A stretch of 64,000 nucleotides of DNA from Mycoemilia scoparia. Lineage: Eukaryota > Kickxellomycota > Kickxellomycetes > Kickxellales > Kickxellaceae. The DNA is taken from the NCBI GenBank assembly GCA_027575805.1, contig JANBPU010000087.1, forward strand, positions 1 through 64,000. Reading direction: 5' to 3'. The notes below the pieces were generated by a model. That model was not told the DNA's origin. It searched no databases and worked only from the letters and a program-made list of their open reading frames with translations. The position numbers were made by a program, and so were the translations under genes. Shown here piece by piece: positions 424 to 62,553 of the stretch (the stretch's first letter is position 1; each line of letters begins with the position of its first letter).

Positions 424-958
424 ATGAGTTGAAAGATACAAAAAGTTTTTGATAATATTATAAAAGAATTAACAAGTAGTGCTGGTACTACTGTTATTTA
501 TAATAGTATTATGAAAAATTATACAAAAAATTACTAGTAGTAGTAACATTAGTAATAATAGTAATAATAGTCATAGTAAAAGCTATACTAAAGATACGAA
601 GACTACTAATAATTCAAAAAGTAATAACACAAAAAGTAATTTTATATTTCCATTTATTTTACAATATTTAAGTATCACTATACCATCAGAATCTGAACCA
701 TATATACAATATGCTTTCGGAGTATTTTTAATAAGTTTAGTATGTTTATTTTGTATTATTAATATTTTATTTTATTTTTTTTAGTATTTATTTAATAGAT
801 AAAAAAAATTTAATAAAAAAAATGACCAAATTTAGAGTGATTCATAAATAAATATAAGAATACTATATGAATATTTATTTTAATAGAAGCAATAATATGT
901 TTAGGATTATTATTATTCTTAATTATTACAAGTTTAATAGTAATAAGTGTTATTATAT
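424..958 (+). pseudogene. Degraded member of the two-helix membrane ORF family
   Basis: The ATG at 424 opens a frame of 37 codons (MSWKIQKVFDNIIKELTSSA...) that ends at a triple TAG near 535. A +1 shift restores a Ser/Asn/Lys-rich linker, then a membrane helix (YAFGVFLISLVCLFCIINIL) that ends at a TAG near 783. Another frame then encodes a charged loop and a last helix (LIEAIICLGLLLFLIITSLI) ending near 958. The layout (linker, helix, loop, helix) matches the ORFs at 7756, 34663 and 60774. Several frameshifts and stops make this a relic. Function unknown. Confidence 0.5.
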
Positions 959-1503: not shown

Positions 1504-2109
1504 TTAAGCTTCAATTCTATCTTTTATAGTTTTACCTTCACTATCCTTAATAGATAATATATTACAACCTTCTAAATTAGGATTTTTAGTACATAGATTT
1601 AAATAATCACTAAATTTATTTTTGTAAATAATAAAATCCTTTTCTAATTCAGAAATCTTAATTATTTCTTGTTTAGGATTAGGTAAAGATTCTAAGATTT
1701 TTCCCATTTTGGGAGTAAATATTGGTTTAGCACCTATATTAGTTAAAATATGATCATAACCCAAACCAACAGTTAAAATAGTACCTACGCCTGTAACACC
1801 ATAACATACACCTTTTATACAATATATACTATAACCTAATATTGTACTTACATAATTAGTAGGACTATTACGTACAATTAATGAGCCTTTCAACATTATA
1901 TTAATCATAAATATTATTCGAATAATATTTATGATTAATATATATATACATAAAAACATACCATTAATTATGATTATATAATTTATTACTATATAACCAG
2001 AATCATATTTATATAAAAATAAAATAAGACATATACCTCCGAGAATCCTTAAGATTCTCATAATTATATGATTATGAAATTGTTCTATAGATTGCGGTAA
2101 AGTATTCAT
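1504..2109 (-). CDS. Hypothetical mitochondrial membrane ORF (plasmid-type)
   Basis: A 201-residue ORF starting at the ATG at 2109, 45 bases after the cob stop. Two hydrophobic helices (about residues 18-35 and 42-70) are followed by a short motif LKGSLIVRNSP, a Cys/Gly-rich hydrophobic stretch (YCIKGVCYGVTGVGTILTVG) and a hydrophilic tail with PIFTPKMGK. From memory this pattern resembles uncharacterised ORFs found in fungal mtDNA and linear mitochondrial plasmids. The frame reopens for about 30 codons beyond the TAA. No function can be assigned and no captured leader was recognised upstream. Confidence 0.6.
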   Translation of the reverse strand: MNTLPQSIEQFHNHIIMRILRILGGICLILFLYKYDSGYIVINYIIIINGMFLCIYILIINIIRIIFMINIMLKGSLIVRNSPTNYVSTILGYSIYCIKGVCYGVTGVGTILTVGLGYDHILTNIGAKPIFTPKMGKILESLPNPKQEIIKISELEKDFIIYKNKFSDYLNLCTKNPNLEGCNILSIKDSEGKTIKDRIEA

Positions 2110-5100: not shown

Positions 5101-7636
5101 GTATGGAAGAACATAACCCAAGAAAGCTGTAGCCATCATAACTATAAATATTATGATACCTATGTATCATAATAATAATCTAGGTTTTCTATATGAACCA
5201 TAATATAAAGCTTTACCTATATGTATGTATACAAAAATAAAAAAGAATCCAGCTGTATTAGAATGTAAATATCTAATTATTCAACCATTATTTACATCTC
5301 TCATGATCAATAAAGATTAATAAGAAATTTTATTAAATATTTATTTTAAACCTATAAAATAAATATTTATTTTTATATAATTTATTAGTATCTATATATC
5401 TATTAATGGTTCTATTGCCTTTTATATTTAATATTTTTGAACTGCATTATAAGATTTAAAAGGTGAACCATTTATCAATTTATTATTTTCATATATATAT
5501 ATACTTTTAATCCATATCTTGAACTTTTATCTTTAGAATTTTTTTTTGAGCTAATTTAGTATGATTTAATTAATATATCAAAAGGTGGTTTTGTATTAAA
5601 TATACGGTCAACTGTAGTTGACTCTAAAGAAATATTATTTACTGTGCTATATCTTTTTTTATAATATTAGATATATTTTTTATATTATTAGATATATTTT
5701 TTTTATATTTTTACCTTCAAATAATAAATAAAGACCGTAATTACTATAAAATAGTAGTGAATAACCTAAATAATATAAATTAAAACATAATTAAATAAGT
5801 AATATTTGTAATCAAATACATTATAAATAATAAATTTATTTATAATTTTCTTCCAAAATTCCTTTTTTATTAATAAAATTTTATTTAAGCTGTGATCGTA
5901 CAAATCAGCTTTATTTTCCATTAAATTTACAACTATACAAAATTTTTTGAAATCCAATAATTTTGAACTTTGAAGAGAATAATTATTTAAAAATGGTATT
6001 ATTTTATTGTTAATAATTTAGATACAACATAATGTATTTGATTATTCTTAGGTTTTTCATATAATTTTCCACAATTAAAATAATTTATTCATTAAAAAAC
6101 AATTACGTGAATGTTGAACTAAAATAAAATTCAACTAGATATCCTATTTTGTAGGCTTACCTTTCTTTATTTTAACAAAAAAAAAGCTTCACTATCTATA
6201 AAATCAGATAGCCTATTAAGATTAATATTTTGTACTATTTGGACTAAAGATCTTATTATTGGTTAAATATTAGAATAATTTAAAGTTAATTCTTTAGATA
6301 AACCCTTATTAATTGAAGCTTTTATACTAATAATTCTTTTTATACCTTCATTAGTAAGATGTTCTTTACAATTTATTATTTCAATCACTAATTTAAAAAG
6401 TTTTAAATCTGTTTGTTTTTGAGTTAATTTTATATATTTATCAAAATGAGGTATTATAACATTAGTTAAATCTTTTACAAAATTAACATAATAAATAGCA
6501 GACTTACTAATATTATTTTCATGAACGTTTTCTACTCCAAAAAATGATTGAATACTATTAAATAAAGCTATATCTTTAATATATAAATGTATTGAAAAAG
6601 AAGGTATAATATTAAACCCTGTTTAATATTTATCATTTTTAGAAATATTTATTTGAAAGCAACCTTAAGCATCACTTAATCCACTAAATCACTCTAAAAA
6701 TTCAATAGATTTATGAAATAATATTATGATAAAACTTTTTATAGTTAATAATCATATTATTTTAAATTATATAATTATCTAAATTTCCATTAATCTTATA
6801 TCTTAATTACTTTCGTGATTAATTGGACTATATTATAATAGTAATAAATTTTTATTACTATTCTTTACGTGTAGTCTCTGAAGATTCTACTCAGTCATAA
6901 AAAAGACCTTTGGTTTCCTGCTGATTTTCCATTGTTATATTTTTAATATTTTTACGATTATAAATAATTCGTACTTAATACTTAAGGAGTTCCCAGCATA
7001 TAGTAAAGTTTAAAGAACACATCTAGAGAAAATATGCTCTACACTAGTAAAAGCTAAGTCTATATTAGGACAATAATGCCATTTTATCAATAAAAAAAAT
7101 ATTTTTTTATATTTATTAGATTACAATGTTTAATAAAGTTTAATTTAATAATATTAAATTTATTTAAATAACATACTAAGCATGAATATATGAAATATAA
7201 ATTTTTAATATTTTAATATATATTTGGACTATATTTTTATTATTTTATATATATTTATTTAGGTGTAAAAATAAAATGTATATTTAAATACAAAATAAAA
7301 TAAGTATTTTACGTATAGTCTCTGAAGATCCCATAAATTTATGATTTCTTGCTGATTATCTATAATTATATCCTTAAATTTTTTACCATTATTAATTTAA
7401 TATATATAATTTAATAAGTAGGGTATTTAAGGCTTTAAGAATTTCCAGCATTTAGTAAAATTTTATAGCTACGCAATTATCATAGCTAAAGTTACACCTG
7501 TTATAATTTGGATAACTAAACATACACCTAATAAAGATCCAATACCGAATATATATGATATATTACTAGGAGCTGGTGAATCTATTATAAAATCATTAAC
7601 TAAAGATAAAATTGGATGTTTTTTTAAATTTTTCAT
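2154..7636 (-). CDS. cob: Apocytochrome b (5 exons)
   Basis: Central subunit of the inner-membrane bc1 complex. Exons: 7636-7482, 7079-7034, 5307-5019, 3880-3755, 2719-2154, giving 393 residues. The product begins [20 protein letters not shown] and contains the conserved quinol-site PEFYF-type region and the Q-loop. His ligand regions fall in exons 3-4 (GQMSHWG, FLLPF). UGA encodes Trp (for example GWIIRYLHS and WGSFSV). Every junction obeys U|intron|G and restores conserved residues: [37 protein letters not shown] leader of about 90 bases, copied twice further upstream, precedes the ATG. Confidence 0.95.
2720..3754 (-). mobile_element. cob intron 4, group I
   Basis: A 1035-base intron between HQYG and SNNPLG. 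The 3' core (2725-2880, minus strand) contains AAGTGAAAACGG-like, AAGACCGTCGG and GTACAGTCGA blocks that recur in cox1 intron 6 and cox2 intron 1. Confidence 0.8.
3021..3754 (-). CDS. LAGLIDADG (type 2) homing endonuclease in cob intron 4
   Basis: In frame with cob exon 4, about 243 intronic residues to the TAA at 3021 when TGA is read as Trp. Motifs: [20 protein letters not shown] followed by LLGDCHGE, and later LALAIWIQDDGTW. This is the single-chain family with a VGSLLGD first motif and a W-DDG second motif. It is very similar to the ORF in cox2 intron 1, which shares [10 protein letters not shown] and ATNSF. Likely homing enzyme or maturase of its intron. Confidence 0.85.
3881..5018 (-). 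mobile_element. cob intron 3, group I, with intact LAGLIDADG ORF
   Basis: A 1138-base intron between LVE and FIWGSF. The endonuclease frame fills the 5' part and the core is near the 3' end (about 3900-4150). Confidence 0.8.
4171..5018 (-). CDS. LAGLIDADG homing endonuclease fused in frame to cob exon 3
   Basis: The frame continues from exon 3 through the intron to the TAA at 4171, about 281 intronic residues. Two catalytic motifs are visible: [12 protein letters not shown] near residue 33 of the intronic part and [13 protein letters not shown] about 140 residues later, both with an acidic residue at the metal-binding position. This is a double-motif monomeric enzyme, probably released by proteolysis of the exon-intron fusion as in other cob introns. 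It would cut intronless cob and may assist splicing. UGA codons encode Trp. Confidence 0.85.
5308..7033 (-). mobile_element. cob intron 2, group I, with decayed endonuclease gene
   Basis: A 1726-base intron between VEH and IMRDVNN. Core elements (ATATGCTGGGAACTCC, CAGCAGGAAACC, TTCAGAGACTACACG) lie in its first 200 bases, followed by a degraded LAGLIDADG frame. Confidence 0.8.
5766..6715 (-). pseudogene. LAGLIDADG endonuclease relic in cob intron 2
   Basis: Reading the minus strand gives EWFSGLSDA, then TAA where the catalytic acidic residue is expected, then [11 protein letters not shown], another TAA, and a clean stretch ending [19 protein letters not shown] second domain ([20 protein letters not shown]...) follows after a stop and a frameshift near 6020. 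Two LAGLIDADG domains are therefore recognisable, but in-frame TAA codons and at least one indel break them. Relic of a homing endonuclease; no activity expected. Confidence 0.75.
7080..7481 (-). mobile_element. cob intron 1, group I, no ORF
   Basis: A 402-base intron between LAM and HY codons. It holds group I core elements in order: ATGCTGGAAATTCTTAAAG, AATCAGCAAG and TTCAGAGACTATACG. No open frame. Its core closely resembles that of intron 2, suggesting the two are paralogous. Confidence 0.8.
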
Positions 7637-7733
7637 TTTTTTTTGTGTTAAAGTTTTTATGTAACCTGCATGTGCTAGGATTTATAGTTTTTAATATAGA
7701 TATATTATTATATTTTGATTATTTTATATAAGG
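7637..7733 (-). promoter_or_regulatory. cob 5' leader (original copy)
   Basis: The block 7654-7723 ends 17 bases before the cob ATG. Seventy bases are identical to 8644-8713, and a shorter, slightly diverged copy is at 9499-9541. In each case an ATG follows at 17-19 bases. It probably carries signals for cob mRNA processing or translation. A GGAATTA (TAATTCC on the minus strand) at 7732-7738 marks the end of the upstream ORF. Confidence 0.6.
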
Positions 7734-7755: not shown

Positions 7756-8442
7756 TTATGTATATAATATTAAGTATATACAATATTTAGAAGTTATTAC
7801 TAATAAAAATAAACATACTCAAGATATTATAAATAAAATATTTTGAGATTTAGATCAAATAGAGATATATCTATTTATAAGTTTTTTTATAAATTTACCA
7901 GAAGTATTATCTGGTATATATTTATAAATATGATCTATGTTTTTATATAAAATAAATGAAATATATACATTTAATATAATCATTAACCCTAATATTTGTA
8001 AATTTATTAATTCATATATTTCAGGTAATAAATTAATTGGAAATACAGTAAAATCTAAATTTGAATTTGGATTTTTATCTAATGAATTAATATATTTACA
8101 AGTTAAATAATTGGTTTTATAATTTTTAGTTATATCATTAATGATATTACCTATATGATTTTAAGTTTGAGCGGTAGTAGCTGTTAATACAATTGCTGCT
8201 ATTTTACCACCAACACTAAGTATTTGTTTCGCTAACCTAATACCTGCAGCTACACCCGCACTAATAGATAATGCATTATTAACATATTTAATGTTATCAT
8301 TTGAAAAACTAACCTTAAAATCTGGATTGTTAATATTAATACTATCAGCTATCTTTGTTTCTATTTTTTTAGATACATTTTCAATTGTATCATCAGGATT
8401 TAAATTAGATATTAATAAGTTAATATCTATATGATCATACAT
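7756..8442 (-). pseudogene. Membrane ORF with Gly/Ala-rich helix, one internal TAA
   Basis: A frame of 229 codons from the ATG at 8442 to the TAA at 7756, interrupted once by TAA at 8161-8163. Before the stop there is a hydrophilic start, then a Gly/Ala-rich segment (ISAGVAAGIRLAKQILSVGG). After it the same frame gives a helix (LQILGLMIILNVYISFILY), a basic loop (GKFIKKLINRYISIWSKSQN) and a final helix. It lies between two copies of the cob leader. Similar to the ORFs at 36718 and 60774; from memory the loop pattern resembles ORFs of fungal linear mitochondrial plasmids. Either a recent nonsense mutation or two separate peptides. Confidence 0.6.
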
Positions 8443-8462
8443 GAAATATAAGTATATAAATA

Positions 8463-8624
8463 CTATGATAAATCGAAAAAAAAAAATATTAATATTAATT
8501 TATATAAATTAATATTAATATATGTTATAATATTACTTAGTTTATTAGGTAGATAATTATTATCATTAAGGTAACCTAAAATAATTCCTATTGAAATAGA
8601 AAAGAAAAAAATTGTGTTAAACAT
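8463..8624 (-). CDS. Small two-helix ORF downstream of cob leader copy 2
   Basis: A 53-codon ORF (MFNTIFFFSISIGIILGYLN...) whose ATG lies 19 bases after the duplicated cob leader. Two hydrophobic stretches. It precedes the Gly/Ala-rich ORF at 8442, just as the 67-residue two-helix ORF at 36501 precedes the Gly/Ala-rich ORF at 36718; in the ORF at 60774 the two parts are fused. This parallel suggests it is the N-terminal partner of that ORF. Confidence 0.5.
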   Translation of the reverse strand: MFNTIFFFSISIGIILGYLNDNNYLPNKLSNIITYININLYKLILIFFFFDLS

Positions 8625-8643
8625 TTTTATTATTTTGTTAAAA

Positions 8644-8713
8644 TTTTTATGTAACCTGCATGTGCTAGGATTTATAGTTTTTAATATAGATATATTATTA
8701 TATTTTGATTATT
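8644..8713 (-). repeat. cob leader copy 2
   Basis: Seventy bases identical to 7654-7723, placed 19 bases before the ATG at 8624. Confidence 0.85.
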
Positions 8714-8901
8714 TATAAACAAAAAGATTTAAATATATATTTTATAAATATCGGTTAATATTTATATAAGAATATAATTTATTTATAGTATTATAAAAAT
8801 ATTATATAGGTATATATATTTTAATATATGGAATTATAAATAAAAATAAGAAATATATATTCATAATATTAATATTGTATATATATTTAATAATAACTAA
8901 A

Positions 8902-9481
8902 TTATAAATTATATATTCAAGGATATGTATATATTAAATAATATATAAAAATTAAAGCACTAATAAATAAAAGATACGTAATTTTTATTAATATATTTAA
9001 AATAGGTCCTCTTATTCAATTTAAAAAATTTAAATATTTATTTTGATTTAATTATAAATAAATCAGGATATTTTAAATTTATAATAACGACTGTAAATGT
9101 ATATAAACCTACAAGAATTAATATAAAAGAACAAACTAAAATAGCTAAATAACTATCATTAATATGATATATAAATTCTAATGGAGATTTAATAACAAAT
9201 TCTTATTCATTAATAAATTTATTGATTTCTTCATCTTTTAAAATACTTTCTATAAATTTACAATTTTCATTATTGAAAATTTTTTTTTACAAATTTCATA
9301 AATTCTGTCCCATCTCTCTTTTTTAAAATTTAATTCTAATTCTTCATTACAAAATATTATATAATCATTTTAAAAATGAGGTATATATATTTTAAAATTA
9401 TAATATAAAATCAAAATACCTATGTTAATTATAATTAATAAAATTAAAAATAAAATTGGATGTTTTTTTTTTATTTTTCAT
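8902..9481 (-). pseudogene. Membrane ORF relic fused to the cob start
   Basis: The ATG at 9481 follows cob leader copy 3, and the first codons imitate cob itself (MKN, then KKHPIL after a poly-A slip). A hydrophobic helix follows (LILLIIINIGILILYY), then TAA, a charged region, another poly-A frameshift, TAA, and SPLEFIYHINDSYL with two helices and YPDLFIIKSK, a shift, and WIRGPILNI to the TAA at 8902. The tail closely matches the ORF at 34663 (YPDLFIIKNK, YIRGPLLKI). Two stops and two or three frameshifts mark it as a pseudogene. Confidence 0.65.
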
Positions 9482-9498
9482 TTTTTTTTGTGTTAAAG

Positions 9499-9541
9499 TT
9501 TTATGTAACCTGTATGTACTAGGATTTATAGTTTTTAATAT
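9499..9541 (-). repeat. cob leader copy 3 (diverged)
   Basis: Forty-three bases matching 7654-7696 with about three differences, 17 bases before the ATG at 9481, the same spacing as in cob. The duplication extends into the first codons of cob. Confidence 0.8.
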
Positions 9542-9790
9542 ATATTAATTTCCGATGATTCGAGTAAATAATATATGGTAATCTATTATAAATAAAGTTT
9601 TATTAACATAGATGATATATAATAAAGTATTATTATAAATATATAACTTTTTTTATTAAATATATGTTTAACATGATTATATTGTTATTAATATTATTCT
9701 ATTGATTAATATATATATAATAAATAATCTGTTATTTGATTATTTATTATATTTAATAGGAATTAATATATAGATATATAATAAATATAT

Positions 9791-11940: not shown

Positions 11941-11960
11941 CGTATTATTATATTTTTTAT

Positions 11961-12103
11961 ATAGAAATACTATTTAATATATTATATACAAATTTTTATT
12001 AGTCTGTGGATGACAAGATTTGAACTTGTATGGTTAAACCGTCATAACCTAAATATGATATGTATACCAAATTTCATCACATCCACTAATATGGAATTAA
12101 AAA
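11961..12103. repeat. Direct repeat copy 1: nad4 leader plus trnL plus flank
   Basis: About 143 bases repeated at 13049-13191 with roughly three differences. It includes the whole trnL(UAG) gene, the upstream part of the nad4 leader and a TAATTCC motif. The two copies flank the ORF at 12114-13028. Confidence 0.85.
12005..12086 (-). tRNA. trnL: tRNA-Leu(UAG), copy 1
   Basis: Class II cloverleaf with GTGGATG/CATCCAC acceptor stem, anticodon loop TTTAGGT (TAG) and a long variable arm. It differs at one position from the copy at 13093. Confidence 0.9.
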
Positions 12104-12113
12104 ATATATTTTA

Positions 12114-13028
12114 TTATACTGGTATATAAAAATATATTAATATATATATAAATATTAATGAACTAATAAAACATAAATAAGATAAAATTATAATATAATT
12201 TATTAAAGCTCCTCTAAAATAAGAAATTAATTCTAAAAATTTAGATAAAAATTTAATTTTTGTTTTATTAATTAAATTTAAATTTTGATATTTAAAATTA
12301 ATTATTGCAACTGTCATTAAATATATACCTAATAATATTATTAAAAATGTTACACATAACATACCTAAATATGGATCATTTAGATTATAAAATATTTCTA
12401 ATGGAGAATAAGCTTAAAAATCTTTAACTAATTTTTCATAATCATTAGATCTAATAATATCTAATAATCAATCACATTGATAATTATTTTTTATACAATT
12501 ATCAATTTTTATATTAATTATCTCTTTATGAGTTTCTAATAATAAATCTATTTTTTCTTGATCTAATTTATTTATTAATTCAATTTTTATTAAATAACTA
12601 TGTTTTAAACCATAAATATATTTAATACTACTCATTCATAAACTAAAAAAACTAATAGTACCTATAATAGTAGCTAAATTTATATTATTTAAAATTCTAT
12701 AAATTTTAGGTTTACTTATATTAGGATCTGAATATTTGGTTTTTATTATTGAAATAATAGTATCTTTATTAATTACATTATTCGTAAAAATTTTACCAAT
12801 AATTCAACTAACATTTAAAATACCAACATTACTAACACTATTTAATAATTCTCTAAATGTTAAACTTACAATAGGTTTATTTTTAGGACCTAAATAAAAT
12901 ATTTCATAATTTGTATAGTCTATTAATTGATTATCTTTATCTTCACAATAAATAATATTAAAATAATTATAAATTTAAGCTATAATAACTAATAAGATTC
13001 TGATTTTTATAAATTTTTTAAAGTACAT
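12114..13028 (-). pseudogene. Large membrane ORF with two in-frame TAA codons, inserted in a trnL-nad4 leader duplication
   Basis: The ATG at 13028 follows a copy of the nad4 leader. The frame is coherent for 305 codons but contains TAA after LLVIIA (codon 18) and after LVKDF (near 12415). Parts: N-terminal signal-like helix, a hydrophilic domain of about 190 residues with one helix, then SPLEIFYNLNDPYLGMLCVT, a helix, a charged loop with YFRGA and a last helix (CFISSLIFIYILIYFYIP). The tail matches the ORFs at 8902 and 34663 (SPLE, RGP, SALIF). Stops without frameshifts suggest recent decay; readthrough cannot be excluded. Confidence 0.6.
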
Positions 13029-13092
13029 TAGTATTTTATATAGATTATATAGTAATACTATTTAATATATTATATATAAATTTTTATTAGTC

Positions 13093-13174
13093 TGTGGATG
13101 ACAAGATTTGAACTTGCATGGTTAAACCGTCATAACCTAAATATGATATGTATACCAAATTTCATCACATCCAC
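13093..13174 (-). tRNA. trnL: tRNA-Leu(UAG), copy 2
   Basis: Same structure as the gene at 12005-12086, anticodon TAG. One base differs in the variable arm or T arm region. Confidence 0.9.
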
Positions 13175-13180
13175 TAATAT

Positions 13181-13187
13181 GGAATTA
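13181..13187 (-). promoter_or_regulatory. TAATTCC motif embedding the nad5 stop codon
   Basis: The nad5 TAA is the first part of TAATTCC; the same overlap is seen at atp8, atp9, cox2 and two rnl intron ORFs. Putative mRNA 3' end signal. Confidence 0.45.
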
Positions 13188-16100
13188 AAATATTATAAAT
13201 ATAGATATAAAAAATAAAATATATTTTAAATCTTTAAAAAATAATATTATATATAAAAAAGAAAATAAACCAAATATAATATATGTAGCATAATTAGGTA
13301 TTATACCAGAATCTAATTTAGAAAAATTTAAACTACTATGTCATAATGTATTAGTTAAACCATAAGGTCCAATAATTTCTATAATACCTCTATCTATAAT
13401 TTTATTAGTAATATTAGCAAAATTAAAAGCAGAATATATTATTAATTTTTCATATATAGAATCTAATCAATATCCATTAGCTAAAAATTTTTTAATAGTA
13501 ATTAATATATTAAATTTTTGAATTAAATTAAAGAAATGTAAAGGTATATAATAATATGATATAAATGCTATTAATGCACCTATTATACTTAAAATAACAG
13601 GTAATAATTTATATAATATAGGTAAAGAGAATTCAGCATCTATAATATTAATATGTTGAGGTAACATAAATATAGAATTAACTCAAAAATCTGTACCTAA
13701 ACCTATAAATAAATCTTTAAATATATAACCAAAAAATATACTAAATATAGCTAATAAAATTAAAGGACTACTCATTATATATGAAGGTTCATGAGAATGT
13801 TTATATATAGATATAGGTCCATTAGGTGTTCCCATAAAAGTTAATATTAATATTTTTATTGAATATATACTAGTTAAAAAAGCAGTTAATGTACCTAATC
13901 AATAACCTATAGAACCACCTAATAAATATTGACCATAACTTACTTCTATTATTAAATCCTTAGAATAATATCCAGTTAAAAATGGTAAAGCCATTAAACT
14001 TAATGAACCTGTTAACATTACAGTATATGTAAAAGGTAACATATGTATTAAACCACCCATTTTACTAGTATTTTGTTCATCATTTATAGCATGTAAAACG
14101 ACACCTGCAGACATAAATAATAAAGCTTTGAAGAAGCCGTGATTAACAATATGAAATATAGCTATATCATATTGACTAATACCACAAGCTAAAAAAGTAT
14201 ATCCTAATTGCAACAACTTCTCACTATATATAAATTTTAAGATTCTATACATAGTGAATATATTTCACACGTATATTATTATGAAATAATTAAGAAGTTT
14301 TGGACTATTTCTTTATTAATCCTTATATTTATTCCATTTTTCAATTAAATTAATTCATTTATTATATTCATTTAAAGTATTAACATTAAATTTACGATAT
14401 TTTTTATAGAGATATAGATCTTTAATTAATAATAATCTATTTTTTTTTTGAGTTCTTAATGGATAATTAGTAAAATAATTATCTATTAAATTTAATATTT
14501 CCTTTTTTCTATAAATTAAATGTCTGTATGCATCTATTTTAGGACTTACTATAGAAACTCTACCTCCATATAAATTTATTAAAGGTTCTAATAAATATTT
14601 ATTTTTTTGTGTTACACCTATTTGAATTCGTTGTTGAGAATCTACATAAAATATAGATCCATCACTATCTATAAATCCACTATATCAGCCATTATTATAT
14701 GTTAAAGGTTTAGGTTCTATTAAATTTATTAAATATTTTTTACATAATTTATTTAATTGTAATAAACGTATAGGATTTCTAATCTCTCCATTTACAGCAT
14801 TTATTAAATTTATTAATCCTTTTTTATCCCTTAACACATATCTAACTGCATTTGCTCCTGATATTTTTTTTATAGATCCCCCATATTTATGTACTATTTC
14901 ATATAATGCTCCTTGATCTCTAATATCCATAGTGATTTCACAAGTAACATAACCTTTTTTTGTTAATAAAAAATATCCATCACCATCAATTAAACCTGCC
15001 AATCATTGATTAAAATTTTTCAAAATTTCCTTATTATCCGCTTCTTGAAGAGTGATTTTATTCTTTAATATATCTTTATCTATAGTTTTTATAGGTACTA
15101 ATTTAATATTTTGTAAATTATTGCACTTTAATAAATTATTAATTATTAATATATTACTTAATAAATTATAATAAAAAATTGAATAAAATTTGAATAAATA
15201 TAATTTATATATTATATTATATAGATTATTTATAATATATATTAATATCAAACGTATAGTCTCTGAGGTTCCTATAAACTTGCTTATAATAATAAATTTG
15301 GAATTACGTTCCTTTAAATTAAATTTATTATTAATGTAAGAATATATCCAAAATATATCCTTACGAGTTTTTGTTACCTGCGAATTATAACACATTATTA
15401 TGTGAAATTTCTCGCATATAGTTTGATTTATGATTACACTTTCATAAAATATATGATCAGGGTAATCTAGAGCCAATTGACTCATTGTAGAATATGCAAT
15501 AACTTTTTTAATATCATTATGTACTAATGCTATTGAAGCAGCAAATAAAGCTGTACAAGAACCAACAATAGTAACAATAGCTAATGTAGTAGAACTATAT
15601 TCTAAAATAGGTGAAGCTCTCATTAATAAGTATACACCTGCTGTTACCATCGTGGCAGCATGCAATAGAGCTGAAACAGGTGTTGGCTATAATTGTTGAT
15701 ATTTATTATATATAAAATAAATATACCCAAATACTTTCGTATTTGATAGGACTATGTCTTTATATAATGGTATTACTCTTATTTAATTTTTGTTTTAGGA
15801 TTTTATTTAATCCTCCAGGTTTAAAATGTTCTTTATTAATTGTTAATTTATAAATTTTTAATCAATTATAGAAACTTATATATTTTTTACTTTTTAATTT
15901 ATTCACAGAAAAATAATATACAACTTGTTTCAATTTAGTTAAATTAACTGTCATATTATATCCATTATAGCTTTTTAGAAAATGAACTTTACCTCCTAAT
16001 GATATTGCTATCTCATTTAATAATTCAAACTCATTTTTTTGAGATAAAATATATCTTACTTGTATTTGTGTACTATTATATTTTAAACTTTCAATAATAT

Positions 16101-33514: not shown

Positions 33515-33539
33515 TAATGGGTATCATCTCAAAAATGTA
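33515..33539 (+). repeat. Captured nad1 leader block before the omega-type endonuclease
   Basis: Exact 25-base copy of the minus-strand block at 20773-20797; 33 bases to the next ATG versus 32 in nad1. Confidence 0.8.
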
Positions 33540-33572
33540 AATAAAATTAAATATTATTAAAAAAATATTTTA

Positions 33573-34232
33573 ATGTATAAACCAAATTCTAAAGAATTTA
33601 AAGAGTATAAAAAAAATTTATATTTAACAAATACTCAAAAAGAAATATTAATAGGGTGTATGTTAGGTCATTTATATTTACAAAAAGTAAGTACATATAA
33701 TTATAGATTAAGATTTGAACAAGGTGAAGTTCATAAAGATTATATTTTTCATTTATACGATATTTTTAAAAGTTTTGTATTAAAAGAACCTACTAAAATA
33801 GAACGAATAAATAAATTAGGTAATTTAAATATAACTTATCGATTACAAACTATAACACATTCTGAATTTAGATTTTTAGCTGATTTATTTATTGATAATG
33901 ATGGTAAAAAATATGTCCCTAAAGGATTAATAGAAAATCATTTAACTGCTAGAGGATTAACTTATTGATTTATGGATGACGGCGGAAAATTAGATTATAC
34001 TATTAATGAAGGAAAAGGTATAGTTTTTCATACACAACAATTTAATGTAAAAGATGTTAATCAAATGAGTTTAGAATTAAATACTAAATTTCTTTTAAAT
34101 TCATGAGTAGGTTCTAATAAATCTAAACCAGTAATTAAAATATCAGGTAAAAATTATGAAAAAATGATTGAATATATGAATCCTTATTTAATAGAGTCTA
34201 TGTATTATAAATTACCATCATCAAGAAAATAA
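33573..34232 (+). CDS. I-SceI-like LAGLIDADG homing endonuclease
   Basis: 219 residues with TGA as Trp. Strong resemblance to the yeast omega enzyme: PNSKEFKEYKKNLY, IGCMLGHLYLQ, GLIENHLTARGLTYWFMDDG, KPVIKISG, and SMYYKLP at the end; it sits at the same rRNA site. Double-strand cleavage of intronless rnl and gene conversion are the expected activities. First motif has Gly-His where Gly-Asp is usual (MLGHLY): the catalytic Asp is absent there, so cleavage may be impaired. The stop is embedded in TAATTCC. Confidence 0.9.
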
Positions 34233-34662
34233 TTCCCTTATGAGAAATATAATTTTATGTTAATGACATAGTCTAAATAGATATAAAAGTATCTAAAAAT
34301 AATTAAAATATATTATTTTAATTACAAAATTGAACAGGCTGATTATTCATGAGAGTTCATATTGACTGAATAGATTGGCACCTCGATAAATAGATGTCGA
34401 GTATAAATTGGGTTAATTAACAAGAAAAGATTAAAAAAAAAAATTAACTTGTAGCGAAGTAAGTATTGGTATATTAAAAATACTTAAACGTTCAAAGACT
34501 AGAAAGTGAGTTATACCTATAATAATCTTTCTATGAATGCCCGACAATTAAAAAAAAAGATTATATATTAAATATATAAAATTAAAAATTATAAAAAAAA
34601 ATAATACAAAAGTAAATGGTATTAATTGAGATATTATAAAAATTAGGAAAAAAATAGAAACA

Positions 34663-35283
34663 ATGACAACACAAAACAAAAGAATATGTAAAAATGAAAA
34701 ATCATTTTATAATTTTAGTAATATAAATAATAATAAGGTTGAATTATCAAAATTAAACATAATATGTTCAATGATTATAGAAAATAAAAATCAAAACATT
34801 ATAGCATCAATTTCTAGTTTACCTGATTATATTGAAGTAGTAACAATTGAAAAATTTTTATATTTTAATGATATTATTAAAGATTGTTTTATAAATAATA
34901 AAAAATCAGAAACATGTGAATTATATAAAAATATAGTAAAAGAAAACAATATTAAGGTTATCGTAAATAAATCTGAAAATGATGTTTATATAAAATCTGT
35001 ATGAGAATCATTATCTCAAATAGATGATAGTTTTATTGTTATAATAATATTGGCTTTGTTTATGATAATTATATCTATCTATTTATTTACTATAATAATA
35101 ATAAATTTAAGCTATCCAGATTTATTTATAATTAAAAATAAATTTTAAAATAGATGAATTAAATCTTATATAGATATTATAAATTATATTAGAGGTCCAT
35201 TATTAAAAATAATAATTTTACTATGTTACGTAAGTATGTTTTCTGCACTTATATTTCTAAGTTCTATACTATATATATATTAA
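34663..35283 (+). pseudogene. Membrane ORF of the SPLE/RGP subfamily, one internal TAA
   Basis: The ATG at 34663 opens 161 codons (TGA = Trp): a hydrophilic domain, then VWESLSQIDDSFIVIIILAL with a helix, and YPDLFIIKNKF ending at TAA (35146). In the same frame 45 more codons follow: WIKSYIDIINYIRGPLLKII and a second helix to the TAA at 35281. This tail matches the relic at 8902 and the ORF at 12114. The stop falls between the two terminal helices, as in other members. Unknown function; membrane protein. Confidence 0.55.
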
Positions 35284-35340
35284 TATTAGATTAATTAATA
35301 AATATTATTAAATAATAACTATTTAATAAATATATAAAAT

Positions 35341-35378
35341 TTACCCATATAGGTATAAGTACTTTAATTAAATTAAAT
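35341..35378 (+). repeat. cox3 leader copy (in rnl intron 4)
   Basis: Thirty-eight bases identical to 60731-60768 and 61885-61922 (core TTACCCATATAGGTATAAGT), 11 bases before the ATG at 35390. Confidence 0.9.
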
Positions 35379-35389
35379 GAATAAAAATT

Positions 35390-35962
35390 ATGAAGAACTT
35401 TAAATTAATACCAGTTGCAACTACTGCAGCTGGTGCAATAGGTACATATTTCACATCGAAAAAATCACATGATTTAGAAAAATTAAGAATTGAAAGTACT
35501 GAACGAATGCATAGAGAAATGGAATTAGAGAAATATAAAATAGATCAACAGAATATTAATAAGCAAACTATAAATAATAATAAAATGGAACCTATTACAA
35601 ATAGTAATAATATAGAACCTACTGTAAATAGTAATAATATAGAACCTATTGTAAATAGTATATATGAAGATTATTTTAATTTTTTAGATATGTTGTCAAT
35701 AGATCAAATATATGGATTAACATTTTTATTATATAATTTAGGAATGGTTTCTTCAATAATATTTATATGATTAGAATTAAAAATATATGATTGAAATATA
35801 AATTCTGATAATGGGAACCCAAAATTTTTAATAAAAATACTAAATTATATAAAAAAATTTTTAAAATTTAGTTCATCTATTAGTATATATTATTTTATTG
35901 TATGTTTTTGTTTAAATTTAGGTTTAAGTATAGGAACATCTTTATTTTTATTTTTAAAATAA
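35390..35962 (+). CDS. Membrane ORF with coiled coil and repeat linker
   Basis: 190 residues with TGA as Trp; intact. N-terminal hydrophobic segment (LIPVATTAAGAIGTYFT), a charged helix likely to form a coiled coil (DLEKLRIESTERMHREMELE), three 9-residue repeats of the type NNIEPxVNS, then two membrane helices (LTFLLYNLGMVSSIIFIW and a C-terminal one) separated by a basic loop. Preceded by a cox3 leader copy. TAATTCC lies about 24 bases after the stop. Member of the two-helix family; function unknown. Confidence 0.65.
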
Positions 35963-36459
35963 ATTCAAAATAATCTATTTTATATAATTCCATTAAATAT
36001 GAATATTAAAAAAAATTATAAGTTATCTATATTAAAATTATATTTTTTTATAATTATTTTTTATTGAAGACATAGTCTGAACCCTAACGTGAGTTGGGGA
36101 AATAGAATAAACATCTATAAACAAAAACCATTTTTTTTAATATAAAAAAAATGTATTGGTCGACTCATCTTATCCTGGTTGTGTAGTAGCAGCCAAGGGT
36201 TTGGCTGTTCGCCAAATAAAAAGGTATATAAACGTGCCTACGACGATCTATAGATCGTGTGAATACTTCATTATATGCTGGAAACTCTTAAAGCTTTAAA
36301 AACATATGAATAACTACGTTTTCATAAAAATATTAAAGATGTAACAATAGACAATCAGCAGGAAACTATAATGAGATCTTAAACGAATGTTTTTTTAAAC
36401 AAGACTTTTATTTTTAGATTCCTCAGAGACTACATATGAAGTTTCAAAAATAAAAAGTT

Positions 36460-36481
36460 AAATAATTAAAAAGTAAAGAAA
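36460..36481 (+). repeat. cox2 leader copy (in rnl intron 5)
   Basis: Twenty-two bases (AATAATTAAAAAGTAAAG core) identical to 56870-56891, with exactly 19 bases to the following ATG in both places. Confidence 0.8.
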
Positions 36482-36500
36482 TATACAAATAAAGTAAAAA

Positions 36501-36704
36501 ATGAATAATTTAATAAATTTTTTTTCTAATAATATTATTTTTTTTATAAGTTTTACAATATGTTATACAATAGTTTATATAATATTAAATAATTTTAAAT
36601 TTTCTGAAAATAGATATATTAAAATTTTACAACTTTTATGTACTATAATATTTATCTTATTATTAAGTTTATATATAATATATTTAATTAAGGGTGGTTT
36701 ATAA
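36501..36704 (+). CDS. Small two-helix membrane ORF
   Basis: 67 residues, two hydrophobic helices (about 12-30 and 42-63), start ATG 19 bases after the cox2 leader copy. It is followed at once by the Gly/Ala-rich ORF at 36718. The arrangement mirrors 8463/7756 and the N-terminal part of the ORF at 60774. Confidence 0.55.
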   Translation: MNNLINFFSNNIIFFISFTICYTIVYIILNNFKFSENRYIKILQLLCTIIFILLLSLYIIYLIKGGL

Positions 36705-36717
36705 ATACTATGTGAAG

Positions 36718-37194
36718 ATGATTTCAAAAATTAAATACGGTATTAATGCTAATATAAATATTGATAAAGAAACTGGTAAAATTATAGGACGTAGTATTAA
36801 TAGTGTAGGAAGTCAAATTGGAATTGGTGCTACTGTTGGTAGTGTAACTGCTGCTGTTGCTACAGTTTTAAAAACAACATCAATACCACCTGCACAAAAA
36901 GTTGTAGGTGTTATAGGAGCAGCAGCAGTAGCCGGCGGTATTATTCATACAGGTGTTAGTGCTATTAATAGAGTATATAGTAATAACTATGATTTAGATA
37001 AATCTAATTTATTAGATAAATCTAAAAATAATATTATTAAAAATAATAATATAGATCAATCTGTTTTTAATAATGATAAATTTAATCCACCATCTATTTT
37101 AACATGATCTCTGATCATGAACAAATATAAAAATTTTCTTATATGATTTAATTCCTTTTTAATTATTAATTTTTTATTTTTGAAAAAAAGATAG
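36718..37194 (+). CDS. Gly/Ala-rich membrane ORF
   Basis: 158 residues from the ATG at 36718 to the TAG at 37192 (TGA = Trp); a GTG at 36694 overlapping the previous ORF is an alternative start. Central Gly/Ala/Val-rich stretches (VGSQIGIGATVGSVTAAVAT, VVGVIGAAAVAGGIIHTG) ending SAINR, an Asn/Lys-rich linker, and one C-terminal helix. From memory similar to uncharacterised fungal mitochondrial plasmid ORFs. The stop overlaps the intron's 3' core, so the tail may be truncated by the insertion. Confidence 0.6.
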
Positions 37195-37654
37195 TCCAAT
37201 TGATTATGAAAGTGATCATATTAATTGACGTGAGTTGGGTTAAGTACGTCGTTAGACAGTACGGATCCTATCTACTAATGGAAAAGAAATTAAAATATTA
37301 ATGTTGATCGTTGTACGAAAGGAATCGATTGAGTTAATCTCTGGTATACCAGTTATATAAACTTGAAGAGTTTTGTACGGCTGGAATGCTATATTAATTA
37401 AAGATAACTACTGAAAGCATATAAAGTAAGAAACTGATTAATTGAAATTTCTAAATAATAGATATGCAGAAGAATACTGCATAATAGGCTATTTGTATAT
37501 ATATCGAAAGATAAGAGCTAAATAGTACTAAAAATCAAGAAACTTGATTAAAAATTTATCATAAATATATAGACATTAAATTATAATGTCCTAAAAAATA
37601 AAAATTAATACATTAATATAAATTATAAAATTGTAATTGAATATATTTATTCTT

Positions 37655-56126: not shown

Positions 56127-56184
56127 CTTTTAAATATATATTTTTATTATGGGTCATACATACAATTTTATTATAAATAATAAA

Positions 56185-56210
56185 ATTAATTAAAAAAGTA
56201 AAGAAAAATA
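56185..56210 (+). repeat. cox2 leader copy upstream of the ORF at 56226
   Basis: Imperfect copy of the cox2 leader (AATTAAAAAAGTAAAGAAA); 19 bases separate its end from the ATG at 56226, exactly as in cox2 and at 36501. Confidence 0.75.
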
Positions 56211-56225
56211 TAAAAAATTCGTTTG

Positions 56226-56758
56226 ATGAAAAAATACTTAACCCATATTTCAGCTCCCGTTAGGAGTGTTGCTATTATTTCGACTACGGCTATTTTCAAT
56301 AATGAAAGAAGTCTTAATGCTCAAGAAAAACTAGTTAAATTACAAATAGAGTGGGATTTATCAAAATTAAATACCCCTCAACAAGATCATAAAAATATTA
56401 ATAATCTTAAGGATCACCTTGCCTACGGGGAGGAAGATCTTAAAAATATATAATAAAGCAGTCTTTTTGATTCTTTTATTTCATGTATTGATAATTTATC
56501 TATAACAATAATTTTGTATTAGTGTTGTTCTATTATCTATTGTAGGTATTATTAGTAGTTTTTATTATATATTATATATATTTTAATAAATGGAGATTCA
56601 TTATTTAATAAATTTTCTAAATTAAAATTTGTATTAAATTTTTATAAAAAATTTAATAAATATAGTAATATATATCATATTTCTATTATTATATTTTGTT
56701 TTATTTATATATTATTACTAGCTTTATATTTTTTTATAAGAGGTATAGCTAAATAATA
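56226..56758 (+). pseudogene. Degraded membrane ORF upstream of cox2
   Basis: The ATG at 56226 opens 75 codons: a short basic start, a hydrophobic segment (VRSVAIISTTAIF), then a charged helix (AQEKLVKLQIEWDLSKL) like the coiled coil at 35390. After two TAA codons, other frames encode a helix (VVLLSIVGIISSFYYILYIF) ending at TAA, a basic loop (NKFSKLKFVLNFYKKFNKYS) and a last helix to the TAA near 56756. The N-terminal part could still be made as a separate peptide. Confidence 0.55.
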
Positions 56759-56869
56759 AGATCTACAAAATAACTACCTATATAATTCTTATTTTAATTC
56801 TATGTATTAATATTATATAAGATCCCCTTATTAATGGGGGGAGATCGAAAAAATTTCCGTAAACGGAGT

Positions 56870-56891
56870 AAATAATTAAAAAGTAAAGAAA
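56870..56891 (+). promoter_or_regulatory. cox2 5' leader block (original copy)
   Basis: Twenty-two bases ending 19 bases before the cox2 ATG; identical copy at 36460-36481 and a diverged one at 56185-56206. Confidence 0.6.
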
Positions 56892-56910
56892 AATAAAAAA
56901 AAATTTATAT

Positions 56911-60694: not shown

Positions 60695-60730
60695 ATAATT
60701 TATAAATCATGTATAAAAAATATATAAAAA

Positions 60731-60768
60731 TTACCCATATAGGTATAAGTACTTTAATTAAATTAAAT
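60731..60768 (+). repeat. cox3 leader copy upstream of the ORF at 60774
   Basis: Thirty-eight bases identical to 61885-61922 and 35341-35378; 5 bases to the next ATG. Confidence 0.9.
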
Positions 60769-60773
60769 AGTCG

Positions 60774-61721
60774 ATGAAATTATTCAAAAATTTTAAATTT
60801 ATTTTTATTAAATATATAAATTTAAATATATTTAAATTATTATTTGTTATTATATTATTAAGTATTATTTTTTTTGTTGAATCTTTAAATTTTACACTAA
60901 TTTATTATAAATTATTTTTTTTAGGTTCTTTAATATTTTCTTTTTTATTGATTTTAAAAAACCCTATATATTTAGATTCTTCTGATAAAAATTCAGTAAA
61001 TGAAACTTTATCACAGGTTTCTTCTACTAATTTAAATTCTGGAGAATCTTTAAATAATACTAAAAATAGTATTAATAATTTACCTAATATTAAGGTAGAT
61101 CATACCCATCATGTTGACGGTACTACTTTATTAAGTAAGAGTTTAGAAACTATAGGTGAGGGTCTTTCCAAAATTGCTCCAGCTGCTACAGGTTTAGTTG
61201 TTGGAACAGCAGTAGTGAAAGGTATTAAAGCAATGCCTGGTTCTTCTAATCAAAAATTTGTTGCTGGTGTAGCCAGTGGTTTAATTACAAGTACTACTGT
61301 TATTTCTACGCAACTAATCCATAATTTAAAGGATGTTAAAGTTGATATTTCAAATGAACCATCTTCACTTTCGGAAAAATATTATATGGATAATTTTAAA
61401 GAATCCAATATTTTTTCATTTAATTTCGAAATATTAAATGAATATTTCGAAAAATTTACTCCATTTGAAGGTTTATTAATCTGTATTGTAATATATAGTT
61501 ATATCGCTTTAATTTTAAGTATTTATGTTATAATACCATAAATTATAGATTTATTAAATTTAAAAGAAAGATCTTTTATTAAAAATAGACCTTTTTTATT
61601 AAAATATATAAATTTTTATCTAAATTCTAATAAAATTATGGGTTTAATACTATTATTACTTATTATTATATGTTTATTTTGTATTTTAATTATATCATTA
61701 TATCTTTTAGGTAGTATTTAA
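60774..61721 (+). CDS. Gly/Ala-rich membrane ORF between cox2 and cox3
   Basis: The ATG at 60774 gives 255 residues to the TAA at 61539; the same frame continues 59 more codons to the TAA at 61719. Parts: two N-terminal helices (to residue 62), a Ser/Asn-rich linker, Gly/Ala-rich segment (ATGLVVGTAVVKGIKAMPGS, FVAGVASGLITSTTV), linker, helix FEGLLICIVIYSYIALILSI, TAA, basic loop and a last helix (LILLLLIIICLFCILIISL). It is the most complete member of the family. The TAA separates the two terminal helices as in other members. TAATTCC lies about 60 bases after the second stop. Function unknown. Confidence 0.65.
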
Positions 61722-61884
61722 TAATCATTTTATTTTAAGTATTATTAGACTTATTATATATGTTTATATTAAACATTAATTATAATTCCCCTCCTAAAAG
61801 GGGGGAGGAGATATTAATATAGGTAGCTATATTTTATATGATTTTTTTTTATTACCCCCCTTTAGGGTATGATATATATAAAAA

Positions 61885-61922
61885 TTACCCATATAGGTAT
61901 AAGTACTTTAATTAAATTAAAT
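61885..61922 (+). promoter_or_regulatory. cox3 5' leader block (original copy)
   Basis: Thirty-eight-base block 12 bases before the cox3 ATG; exact copies at 35341 and 60731. Confidence 0.65.
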
Positions 61923-61934
61923 TAAAAAAAAATT

Positions 61935-62553
61935 ATGAATATTCAATCATTTCCATTTCATTTAGTTCAAACAAGTCCTTGACCATTAGCTACATCTATT
62001 TCTTTATTAATAACAACTATATCAAGTGTATTATTATTTCAAGGTTTTAATAGTACATTATTATTAACTATTGGTATATTATCATTATTGTCTTGTATGG
62101 CTTTATGATGAAAAGATGTAATAGTAGAAAGTACATTTTTAGGTGATCATACAATAGAAGTAGTTAATGGAATTAAAATAGGATTTATATTATTTTTATC
62201 TACTGAAGCATTTTTTTTTATTTCAATTTTTTGAGCTTATTTACATTCTGCTTTAGCACCTTCTGTAGAATTAGGTGCTATGTGACCACCTATGGGTATA
62301 GAAAGTGTTAATCCATTTGGTATACCTTTACTTAATACTTTTTTATTATTATCATCAGGTGCTACAGTTACTTGAGCTCATTATGCTTTAATACAAGGTA
62401 ATAGAACTAATGCAATTAGAGCATTAGTTCTTACTATTATTTTATCTTTAATATTTACAGCTTTTCAAGGTTTTGAATATTATTATGCACCTTTTACTTT
62501 TGCAGATGGTGTTTTTGGTAGTGTTTTTTATTTTGGTACTGGGTTTCATGGAT
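61935..62553 (+). CDS. cox3: Cytochrome c oxidase subunit 3, exon 1 (gene continues past the window)
   Basis: About 206 residues before the intron: MNIQSFPFHLVQTSPWPLAT, LWWKDVIVEST, GFILFLSTEAFFFISIFWAY, WPPMGIE, SSGATVTWAHYALI, FTFADGVFGSVFYFGTGFHG. Membrane subunit of complex IV. The frame then enters a group I intron; the last exon (expected LHVIIG...) is not in the window. TGA = Trp at several conserved positions. Confidence 0.95.

What the first reader, a model, noticed from the sequence alone, without database searches (positions are those of the whole stretch)
60774..61721. A proliferating family of mitochondrial membrane ORFs with a shared two-helix tail
Loci near 424, 7756, 8902, 12114, 34663, 35390, 36501/36718, 56226 and 60774 share: a hydrophobic or Gly/Ala-rich segment, a linker, then helix-basic loop-helix. 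Three tail subtypes recur (SPLE...RGP; coiled coil; Gly/Ala-rich with AINR/STT). From memory these resemble unnamed ORFs of fungal linear mitochondrial plasmids, yet no plasmid DNA or RNA polymerase is in the window. Nine copies, in states from intact to relic, suggest ongoing spread.
Basis: partly seen in the sequence, partly recalled or inferred. Interest (0 to 1): 0.92.

Follow-up and report, generated by a model that had tools for sequence, protein, structure and literature searches.

The report
Mitochondrial membrane ORFs under borrowed leaders
In this fungal mitochondrial genome, most of a set of unknown membrane-protein genes sit directly behind copied start regions of respiratory genes, which suggests that foreign genes persist there by borrowing the cell's own start signals, much as sterility genes do in plant mitochondria.

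Summary
All nine loci exist, on a 66,079-bp fungal mitochondrial contig. They are one family only in part: the tails at 8902, 12114 and 34663 are clearly homologous, 7756 and 60774 suggestive, the other four share only a layout. The stronger finding is upstream. Seven of nine begin at a duplicated 5' leader of a respiratory gene (cob two, cox3 two, cox2 two, trnL-nad4 one), start codons within 2 nt of register in six and 7 nt in the seventh. Five of the seven exceed all 1,818 control ATGs; the two cox2 cases are equalled or exceeded by 1 and 2 and lie inside a second, shuffle-based null. ORF type and leader assort independently, so leaders were captured rather than inherited with the ORFs. Three loci lie inside rnl introns read as group I, and one rnl-intron endonuclease ORF carries a nad1 leader. 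Only 35390 is fully intact. The plasmid link could not be tested: no plasmid polymerase was found (the DNA-polymerase search had no working control), and limited database searches gave no relatives. Best reading: foreign membrane ORFs that persist by capturing core-gene leaders, analogous to plant CMS ORFs. Expression and function are inferred.

The parts
60774..61541 (+). ORF L (255 aa, code 4): two N-terminal hydrophobic segments, linker, Gly/Ala-rich stretch, first tail helix; TAA at 61539. The frame runs on to 61721 with the second tail helix
60720..60768 (+). copy of the cox3 5' leader before ORF L (49 of 49 nt identical)
61874..61934 (+). genuine cox3 leader (cox3 ATG at 61935)
35390..35962 (+). 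ORF H (190 aa, intact): hydrophobic N-terminus, coiled-coil-like stretch (by eye), 27-nt repeats, two-helix tail; inside an rnl intron
35330..35389 (+). copy of the cox3 leader before ORF H (match 35330-35394, 94% over 66 nt, start codons within 1 nt)
7756..8624 (-). ORF B/C: starts at ATG 8624; frameshift near 8466-8499; TAA at 8161; two N-terminal hydrophobic segments, Gly/Ala-rich stretch, two-helix tail
8626..8714 (-). copy of the cob leader before ORF B/C (95.5% over 89 nt)
8902..9481 (-). relic D: broken in several frames; begins with a copy of about the first 10 codons of cob DNA; tail homologous to 12114 and 34663
9482..9545 (-). copy of the cob leader before relic D (match runs 9545-9451, 93% over 96 nt, into the cob coding start)
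7637..7724 (-). genuine cob leader (cob ATG at 7636)
12114..13028 (-). ORF E/F: starts at ATG 13028; two in-frame TAA (12975 and 12414); tail homologous to 8902 and 34663
13029..13193 (-). copy of trnL(uag) plus the nad4 leader before ORF E/F (93% over 163 nt; start codons aligned)
11941..12105 (-). second trnL(uag) plus genuine nad4 leader (nad4 ATG at 11940)
34663..35283 (+). ORF G: in an rnl intron; TAA at 35146 between the tail helices; no core-gene leader found
36501..37194 (+). ORF J/I, broken: two N-terminal helices (36501), Gly/Ala-rich part (36718-37191); its stop overlaps the P7' motif of the intron
36459..36500 (+). copy of the cox2 leader before ORF J/I (match 36459-36519, 79% over 61 nt; start codons aligned)
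56226..56753 (+). relic K: coiled-coil-like N-terminus (by eye) open for 75 codons, then broken
56184..56217 (+). copy of the cox2 leader before relic K (91% over 34 nt; start codons aligned)
56869..56910 (+). genuine cox2 leader (cox2 ATG at 56911)
424..784 (+). locus A: broken ORF with one hydrophobic C-terminal segment (by eye); no leader copy found; membership unproven
33515..33561 (+). copy of the nad1 leader (20797-20750, minus strand; 85% over 48 nt) before the rnl-intron endonuclease ORF (ATG 33573)
34405..36160 (+). rnl intron holding ORFs G and H, read as group I (sub-threshold Rfam core match 34405-34545; complementary P7/P7' motifs at 34496 and 36073; bounds approximate)
36216..37222 (+). 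rnl intron holding ORF J/I, read as group I from complementary P7/P7' motifs at 36427 and 37192 only (no Rfam intron match; bounds read by eye)

Best explanation
These are foreign membrane-protein ORFs, probably accessory genes of mitochondrial plasmids, that entered this fungal mitochondrial chromosome repeatedly and survive as expressed genes only where they acquired a way to be translated. SHOWN: seven of nine begin at a duplicated 5' leader of cob, cox3, cox2 or nad4, with start codons in or near register; the same ORF type occurs behind different leaders and the same leader before different ORF types; copies range from intact to shredded. INFERRED: recombination (a leader-plus-ORF molecule integrating by one crossover in the leader, or template switching in break repair) gave the order leader-ORF-leader-core gene; the captured leader recruits the core gene's nuclear-encoded mRNA maturation and translation factors, so the ORF is made with the respiratory subunit and inserted in the inner membrane; ORFs G, H and J/I use the peripheral loop of rnl introns, where endonuclease genes normally sit. 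Copies decay once selection or transmission advantage ends, and new ones arrive.
For: Leader scores against 1,818 other ATGs of the contig: cob before B/C 88.4, nad4 before E/F 76.0, cox3 before H 61.4, cox3 before L 60.2, cob before D 53.6 (each 0 of 1,818 as high); cox2 before J 30.4 (1 of 1,818), cox2 before K 25.6 (2 of 1,818). Register shifts 2, 0, -1, -7, -1, 0, 0 nt. Motifs of 18 to 22 nt from the cob, cox3 and cox2 leaders (the cob and cox2 ones with one or two degenerate positions) occur 3 times each on the contig, once at the core gene and twice before ORFs, nowhere else, same strand. E/F carries a whole duplicated trnL with the nad4 leader. D copies about the first 10 codons of cob. 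Of 25 endonuclease-type spans (102 in-frame ATGs tested), 24 lack a leader copy (best 21.0); the exception is an rnl-intron ORF with the nad1 leader. Independent assortment: homologous tails lie behind cob, nad4 and no leader. The homologous tails diverged as coding sequence: differences by codon position 112/56/103, true frame best in 6 of 6 comparisons.
Against: No transcript or protein data. Only 1 of 9 ORFs is fully intact, so present function is doubtful for most. G and A have no leader copy. dN/dS is high (0.66 to 1.5), so constraint is weak. The plasmid origin has no database support. The two cox2 cases rest on 34-61 nt of AT-rich sequence, are equalled or exceeded by 1-2 of 1,818 controls, and their BLAST scores (52.7 and 45.5 bits), like that of the nad1 copy (52.7), lie inside a pooled null of 280 dinucleotide-shuffled leaders (95% at 63.5, maximum 85.1 bits), which only the cob, cox3 and nad4 copies exceed. 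A 10-nt core of the cox2 motif also occurs at 32177. One endonuclease ORF also has a leader, so capture is not peculiar to this set. The 5' ends of mRNAs are unknown, so 'leader' means the conserved block upstream of the start codon. The group I reading of the two introns is weak: one Rfam match below threshold (29.1 of 50 bits), not listed in the wider scan, which gave no intron match for the other.
Confidence: 0.6

Rival explanations
1. Neutral by-product: mitochondrial repair scatters short duplications of active gene starts, and plasmid-derived ORF fragments merely survive next to them; nothing is expressed to effect.
For: Most copies are broken. Other duplications exist: a cox3 3' end copied beside a downstream ORF and the antisense atp8 start upstream of rnl-intron ORFs. 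dN/dS is high.
Against: Leader copies end at or near the start codon of an ORF, on the same strand, in 7 of 9 loci; the cob, cox3 and cox2 motifs occur nowhere else on the contig. Random duplication would not choose start codons.
Confidence: 0.25
2. The ORFs were born in place: tandem duplication of the 5' part of cob, cox2, cox3 and nad4, followed by frameshift and fast divergence, gave orphan membrane ORFs.
For: The order leader-ORF-leader-gene in the same orientation at cob, cox2, cox3 and nad4; D still carries about the first 10 codons of cob.
Against: The D, E/F and G tails are homologous to one another yet sit behind cob, nad4 and no leader. H and J/I carry cox3 and cox2 leaders inside rnl introns. 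Similarity to the core genes stops at or near the start codon.
Confidence: 0.07
3. The blocks are promoters or integration signals that the mobile DNA itself carried (for example plasmid termini) and left beside the core genes, so the core genes acquired theirs from the element.
For: The same block is found at the ORFs and at the core genes; the string TATAAGTA, like the yeast mitochondrial promoter (recalled), lies in the cox3 block, though it occurs at 11 places on the contig.
Against: Four different blocks, one per core gene; the nad4 block contains trnL, an ordinary mitochondrial gene; core genes need leaders in any case.
Confidence: 0.05

Closest known systems
Plant CMS ORFs, e.g. sunflower CMS PET2 orf288 (PMC5877667, passages read)
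   Same: Small membrane ORF built on the promoter and first codons of a duplicated respiratory gene (orf288: first 53 bp identical to the 5' end of atp9); the paper calls use of flanking regions of respiratory/ATP-synthesis genes typical of CMS ORFs.
   Different: Fungus; several unlinked leaders in one genome; ORF types shared between leaders; part sits in rnl introns; no phenotype known.
Mobile endonuclease ORFs with duplicated gene ends in Glomus and Allomyces (PMC3630166, passages read)
   Same: Element inserted beside a core gene together with a duplicated part of that gene.
   Different: There the C-terminus is duplicated and the ORF is an endonuclease; here the 5' leader is duplicated and the ORF is a membrane protein without endonuclease match in the pieces scanned.
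[quoted passage not shown]
   Same: Duplication of the start of a core gene near an inserted element.
   Different: Exon sequence within introns of the same gene; here non-coding leader before a foreign ORF, sometimes in another gene's intron.
Unnamed ORFs of fungal linear mitochondrial plasmids
   Same: Recalled layout: Gly/Ala-rich segment, SPLE motif, two-helix tail.
   Different: No polymerase found here; terminal repeats not looked for beyond the repeat lists; no relative found in the searches made.

Membership tests
Fungal linear mitochondrial plasmid (integrated) | B-family DNA polymerase gene on the element | tested here: inconclusive
   PF03175 gave 0 matches in the 466-contig assembly, but rang in no control genome
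Fungal linear mitochondrial plasmid (integrated) | single-subunit RNA polymerase gene on the element | tested here: not met
   PF00940: 1 match, on a 1140-codon open frame of another contig (locus about 45% GC), read as nuclear Rpo41; none on the mitochondrial contig; the 14 control genomes did not ring, but this hit shows that the search works
Fungal linear mitochondrial plasmid (integrated) | ORFs homologous to known plasmid ORFs | tested here: inconclusive
   no hits (only the 8000 best candidates scored); 7756, 56226 and 424 not searched; no collection here is known to hold such plasmids
CMS-type chimeric ORF | ORF placed under the 5' region of a respiratory gene | tested here: met
   7 of 9 loci, five of them beyond both nulls
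CMS-type chimeric ORF | hydrophobic/membrane-spanning product | tested here: met
   hydropathy segments in 60774, 35390, 34663, 12114, 7756 and 36501/36718 (stops read as X); none in the first 75 codons of 56226
CMS-type chimeric ORF | phenotype and nuclear restorer | not testable with these tools
   sequence only
Homing endonuclease / intron ORF | LAGLIDADG, GIY-YIG or other endonuclease domain | tested here: not met
   no Pfam match over its cut-off for 9 pieces of the membrane ORFs; the GIY-YIG control ORF in the same call matched. The 36501 part and relics 8902 and 56226 were not scanned
   3 clear, 2 weakly suggestive, 4 not

The most novel reading that the evidence does not exclude
A class of selfish mitochondrial genes that spreads by leader capture: membrane ORFs repeatedly recombine onto the start-codon-exact 5' leaders of respiratory genes, or into introns, so that nuclear translation factors dedicated to cob, cox2, cox3 and nad4 also make the selfish protein. 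It would be a fungal counterpart of plant CMS genes, with successive captures dated by leader divergence.
Probability: 0.3. Interest if true: 0.88.

Novelty: new variant of a known kind. Interest (0 to 1): 0.7.

Why it matters
Unidentified ORFs fill many fungal mitochondrial genomes, and how a foreign ORF becomes expressed in an organelle whose translation depends on gene-specific leaders (general knowledge, mostly from yeast) is largely open. Here one genome offers eight cases of a leader copied in or near register before an ORF (seven membrane ORFs, one endonuclease ORF; five of them beyond both nulls), with internal controls that lack it. It gives a testable rule for annotating such ORFs and a possible link between plasmid invasion, mitochondrial translation control and CMS-like conflict outside plants. 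Leader divergence may also offer a relative clock for each capture.

Tried and rejected
Ten paper searches were answered. No listed title or abstract start dealt with leader duplication before foreign ORFs in fungal mitochondria; two searches listed only 20 of 107 and 12 of 14 papers. Novelty is judged on those searches alone.

Considered and rejected: code 16 (TAG as Leu), because the in-frame stops inside 60774, 34663, 12114 and 7756 are TAA; sequencing error as the general cause of the stops, because nad1, rps3 and several endonuclease ORFs are open over long stretches of the same contig; a duplicated rnl 3' end as the leader of ORF G (my first reading of that repeat), because searches show group I core similarity there and rnl continuing to about 37540; a contribution of the nad5 3' end to the 12114 tail, because similarity beyond the trnL block is weak.

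Results against the reading: leaders absent at G and A; the two cox2 copies and the nad1 copy lie inside the shuffled-leader null, and the cox2 cases are matched by 1 and 2 of 1,818 controls; one endonuclease ORF also has a leader; N-terminal and Gly/Ala parts show no homology above controls; the profile match of 60774 was beaten by 1 of 40 shuffles; Rfam gave only sub-threshold support for one of the two introns and none for the other. The 25 endonuclease spans were picked by eye (the last one); one span (5766-6622) covers two ORFs in different frames and was tested in one frame.

Full report
SETTING. The window is bases 1-64000 of contig C453 (66,079 bp) in a 21.16-Mb, 466-contig assembly. 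It is a fungal mitochondrial chromosome: tRNAs, rns and rnl, and cob, cox1-3, atp6/8/9, nad1/3/4/4L/5/6 and rps3, whose start positions I assigned by reading conserved N-termini. Code 4 fits. The species could not be named.

THE OBSERVATION. All nine loci exist, with one ORF, or the remains of one, at each. The headline ORF runs from 60774 to a TAA at 61539; the second tail helix lies beyond that stop. Only 35390 is fully open. 34663 has a TAA at 35146. The 12114 ORF begins at 13028 and has TAA at 12975 and 12414. The 7756 ORF begins at 8624 with a frameshift near 8466-8499 and a TAA at 8161. 36501/36718, 8902 and 56226 are more broken, and 424 lies in two frames.

ARE THEY ONE FAMILY? Pairwise scores were compared with shuffles that keep the pattern of hydrophobic, polar, acidic and basic positions, with core mitochondrial proteins as controls (105 pairs, best 40 printed). 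The three pairs among 8902, 12114 and 34663 gave z 8.4, 10.2 and 5.7. The next best, 60774 with 424, gave 3.9 against 3.4 for atp9 with nad4L. A profile of the three tails aligned over 62-64 residues with 7756 (HH probability 30%, 0 of 40 shuffles as good) and 60774 (20%, 1 of 40); 35390, 36501, 56226, 424 and 5 control proteins did not align over more than 22. N-terminal and Gly/Ala segments showed nothing above controls (136 pairs, best 22 printed). So three are homologous, two are possible distant members, and four share a layout only. The three homologous tails evolved as protein: differences at codon positions 1/2/3 sum to 112/56/103, and the true frame gives the best amino-acid identity in 6 of 6 comparisons, although dN/dS is 0.66-1.5.

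THE LEADERS. Repeat searches showed that ORFs are preceded by copies of core-gene 5' regions. cob: 7724-7637 (genuine), 8714-8626 (before the 8624 ORF), 9545-9451 (before relic 8902, including about the first 10 codons of cob). cox3: 61874-61934 (genuine), 60720-60768 (before 60774), 35330-35394 (before 35390). cox2: 56869-56910 (genuine), 56184-56217 (before 56226), 36459-36519 (before 36501). nad4: 12105-11941 with trnL (genuine), 13193-13029 with a second trnL (before 13028). Alignments show the blocks ending at or near the start codon, which lies in register within 2 nt, or 7 nt for 60774. The ATGs of the contig more than 100 nt from the listed starts were scored in the same way (n = 1,818; top control 31.0; a 600-ATG sample agrees). 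The ORFs scored 88.4, 76.0, 61.4, 60.2 and 53.6 (0 controls as high), 30.4 (1) and 25.6 (2). 34663 (12.4) and 424 (12.8) have none. A stricter, pooled null of 280 dinucleotide-shuffled leaders reached 85.1 bits (95% at 63.5): the cob (143, 135), nad4 (235) and cox3 (98.7, 89.7) copies exceed it; the cox2 copies (52.7, 45.5) and the nad1 copy (52.7) do not, and rest on position, register. Motifs drawn from the cob, cox3 and cox2 blocks occur three times each on the contig and nowhere else (a 10-nt core of the cox2 motif occurs once more, at 32177). As a further control, 25 endonuclease-type spans (chosen by eye; 102 in-frame ATGs) were scored: 24 gave at most 21.0; one, in an rnl intron with ATG 33573, carries a nad1 leader (36.2; 33515-33561 matching 20797-20750, 85% over 48 nt).

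WHERE THEY SIT. At cob, cox2, cox3 and nad4 the order is leader-ORF-leader-core gene, twice over at cob. The 34663, 35390 and 36501 loci lie inside rnl: its 3' part matches Rfam at 37291-37538 (E 2.4e-22), and I read further exon pieces by eye. Complementary P7/P7' motifs of group I introns bracket 34663+35390 (34496/36073) and 36501/36718 (36427/37192), as they bracket the endonuclease ORF of the preceding intron (33421/34269). Rfam support is weak: a sub-threshold core at 34405-34545 (29.1 of 50 bits), not listed in the wider scan, which gave no intron match for 36216-37222 either. On this reading the ORFs sit in the peripheral loop where intron endonuclease genes usually lie (last point from general knowledge). 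The stop of 36718 overlaps the P7' motif.

WHAT THIS MEANS. Homologous tails occur behind the cob leader, the nad4 leader and no leader; the cob, cox3 and cox2 leaders each precede two different ORF types. ORF and leader have separate histories, so the leaders were acquired. The simplest inference is that a foreign ORF in this organelle needs a gene-specific leader to be translated, and that only captures which supplied one gave a lasting ORF; endonuclease ORFs fused to upstream exons do not need it. The duplicated trnL before the 13028 ORF fits: excision of the tRNA would free the mRNA 5' end (inference). Leader identity to the core gene (60774: 100% over 49 nt; 8624: 95.5%; 35390: 94%; 13028: 93%; 8902: 93%; 56226: 91%; 36501: 79%, over different lengths) runs roughly with decay, with 35390 as the exception; seven points do not allow more than that remark.

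ORIGIN AND FUNCTION. No plasmid polymerase was found in the assembly, with the caveat that the DNA-polymerase family rang in no control genome. No relatives were found for 60774 and the three tails in the protein collection or for 12114, 36718 and 35390 in viral contigs; the other loci were not searched. A plasmid origin remains plausible from memory only. The closest documented mechanism is plant CMS: in sunflower PET2 an insertion uses the promoter and first 53 bp of a duplicated atp9 to make orf288, a small ORF with one predicted transmembrane domain, and the paper calls such use of flanking regions typical (PMC5877667, passages). Fungal mobile endonuclease ORFs with duplicated C-termini (PMC3630166, passages) and introns with N-terminal duplications (PMC7315562, passages) are relatives in mechanism, not the same thing. 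A survey of fungal mitogenomes reports 8.2 unidentified ORFs per genome on average and that 35.5% of those examined lack similarity to known domains (PMC8672057, passages).

VERDICT.

Noticed in passing
window 33515-33573: An rnl-intron ORF that looks like a LAGLIDADG endonuclease (by eye) starts behind a copy of the nad1 leader, so leader capture is not confined to the membrane ORFs.
   Followed up: yes
window 29619, 31714, 34605-34628: The reverse complement of the atp8 start (ATTAATTGTGGCA; at 34605-34628 an overlapping 24 nt of it) lies just upstream of three rnl-intron ORFs; unexplained.
   Followed up: partly
L004 1749-2044 (contig 65749-66044): A relic resembling the 36501/36718 ORF (contig 65832-66044 matches 36571-36802, 71.6%) lies at the contig end, outside the window; no leader found.
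   Followed up: partly
window 61539, 35146, about 9050: Three tails (60774, 34663, 8902) are broken in the loop between the two tail helices; chance or a truncated form is possible.
   Followed up: no
window 1507-2109: An open hydrophobic ORF of about 200 aa follows cob directly; it reminds me of an ORF of basidiomycete mitochondria (memory only); no homolog found.
   Followed up: partly
contig C453: No nad2 was found (all 5 PF00361 matches lie in the regions I read as nad4 and nad5) and the contig ends share no exact overlap of 15 to 2999 nt, so the contig may be incomplete.
   Followed up: partly
L004 180-257 and 814-891 (contig 64180-64257 and 64814-64891): The cox3 3' end is duplicated around a downstream ORF that looks like an endonuclease (86% over 79 nt), the known kind of mobile ORF with a duplicated gene end.
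   Followed up: no
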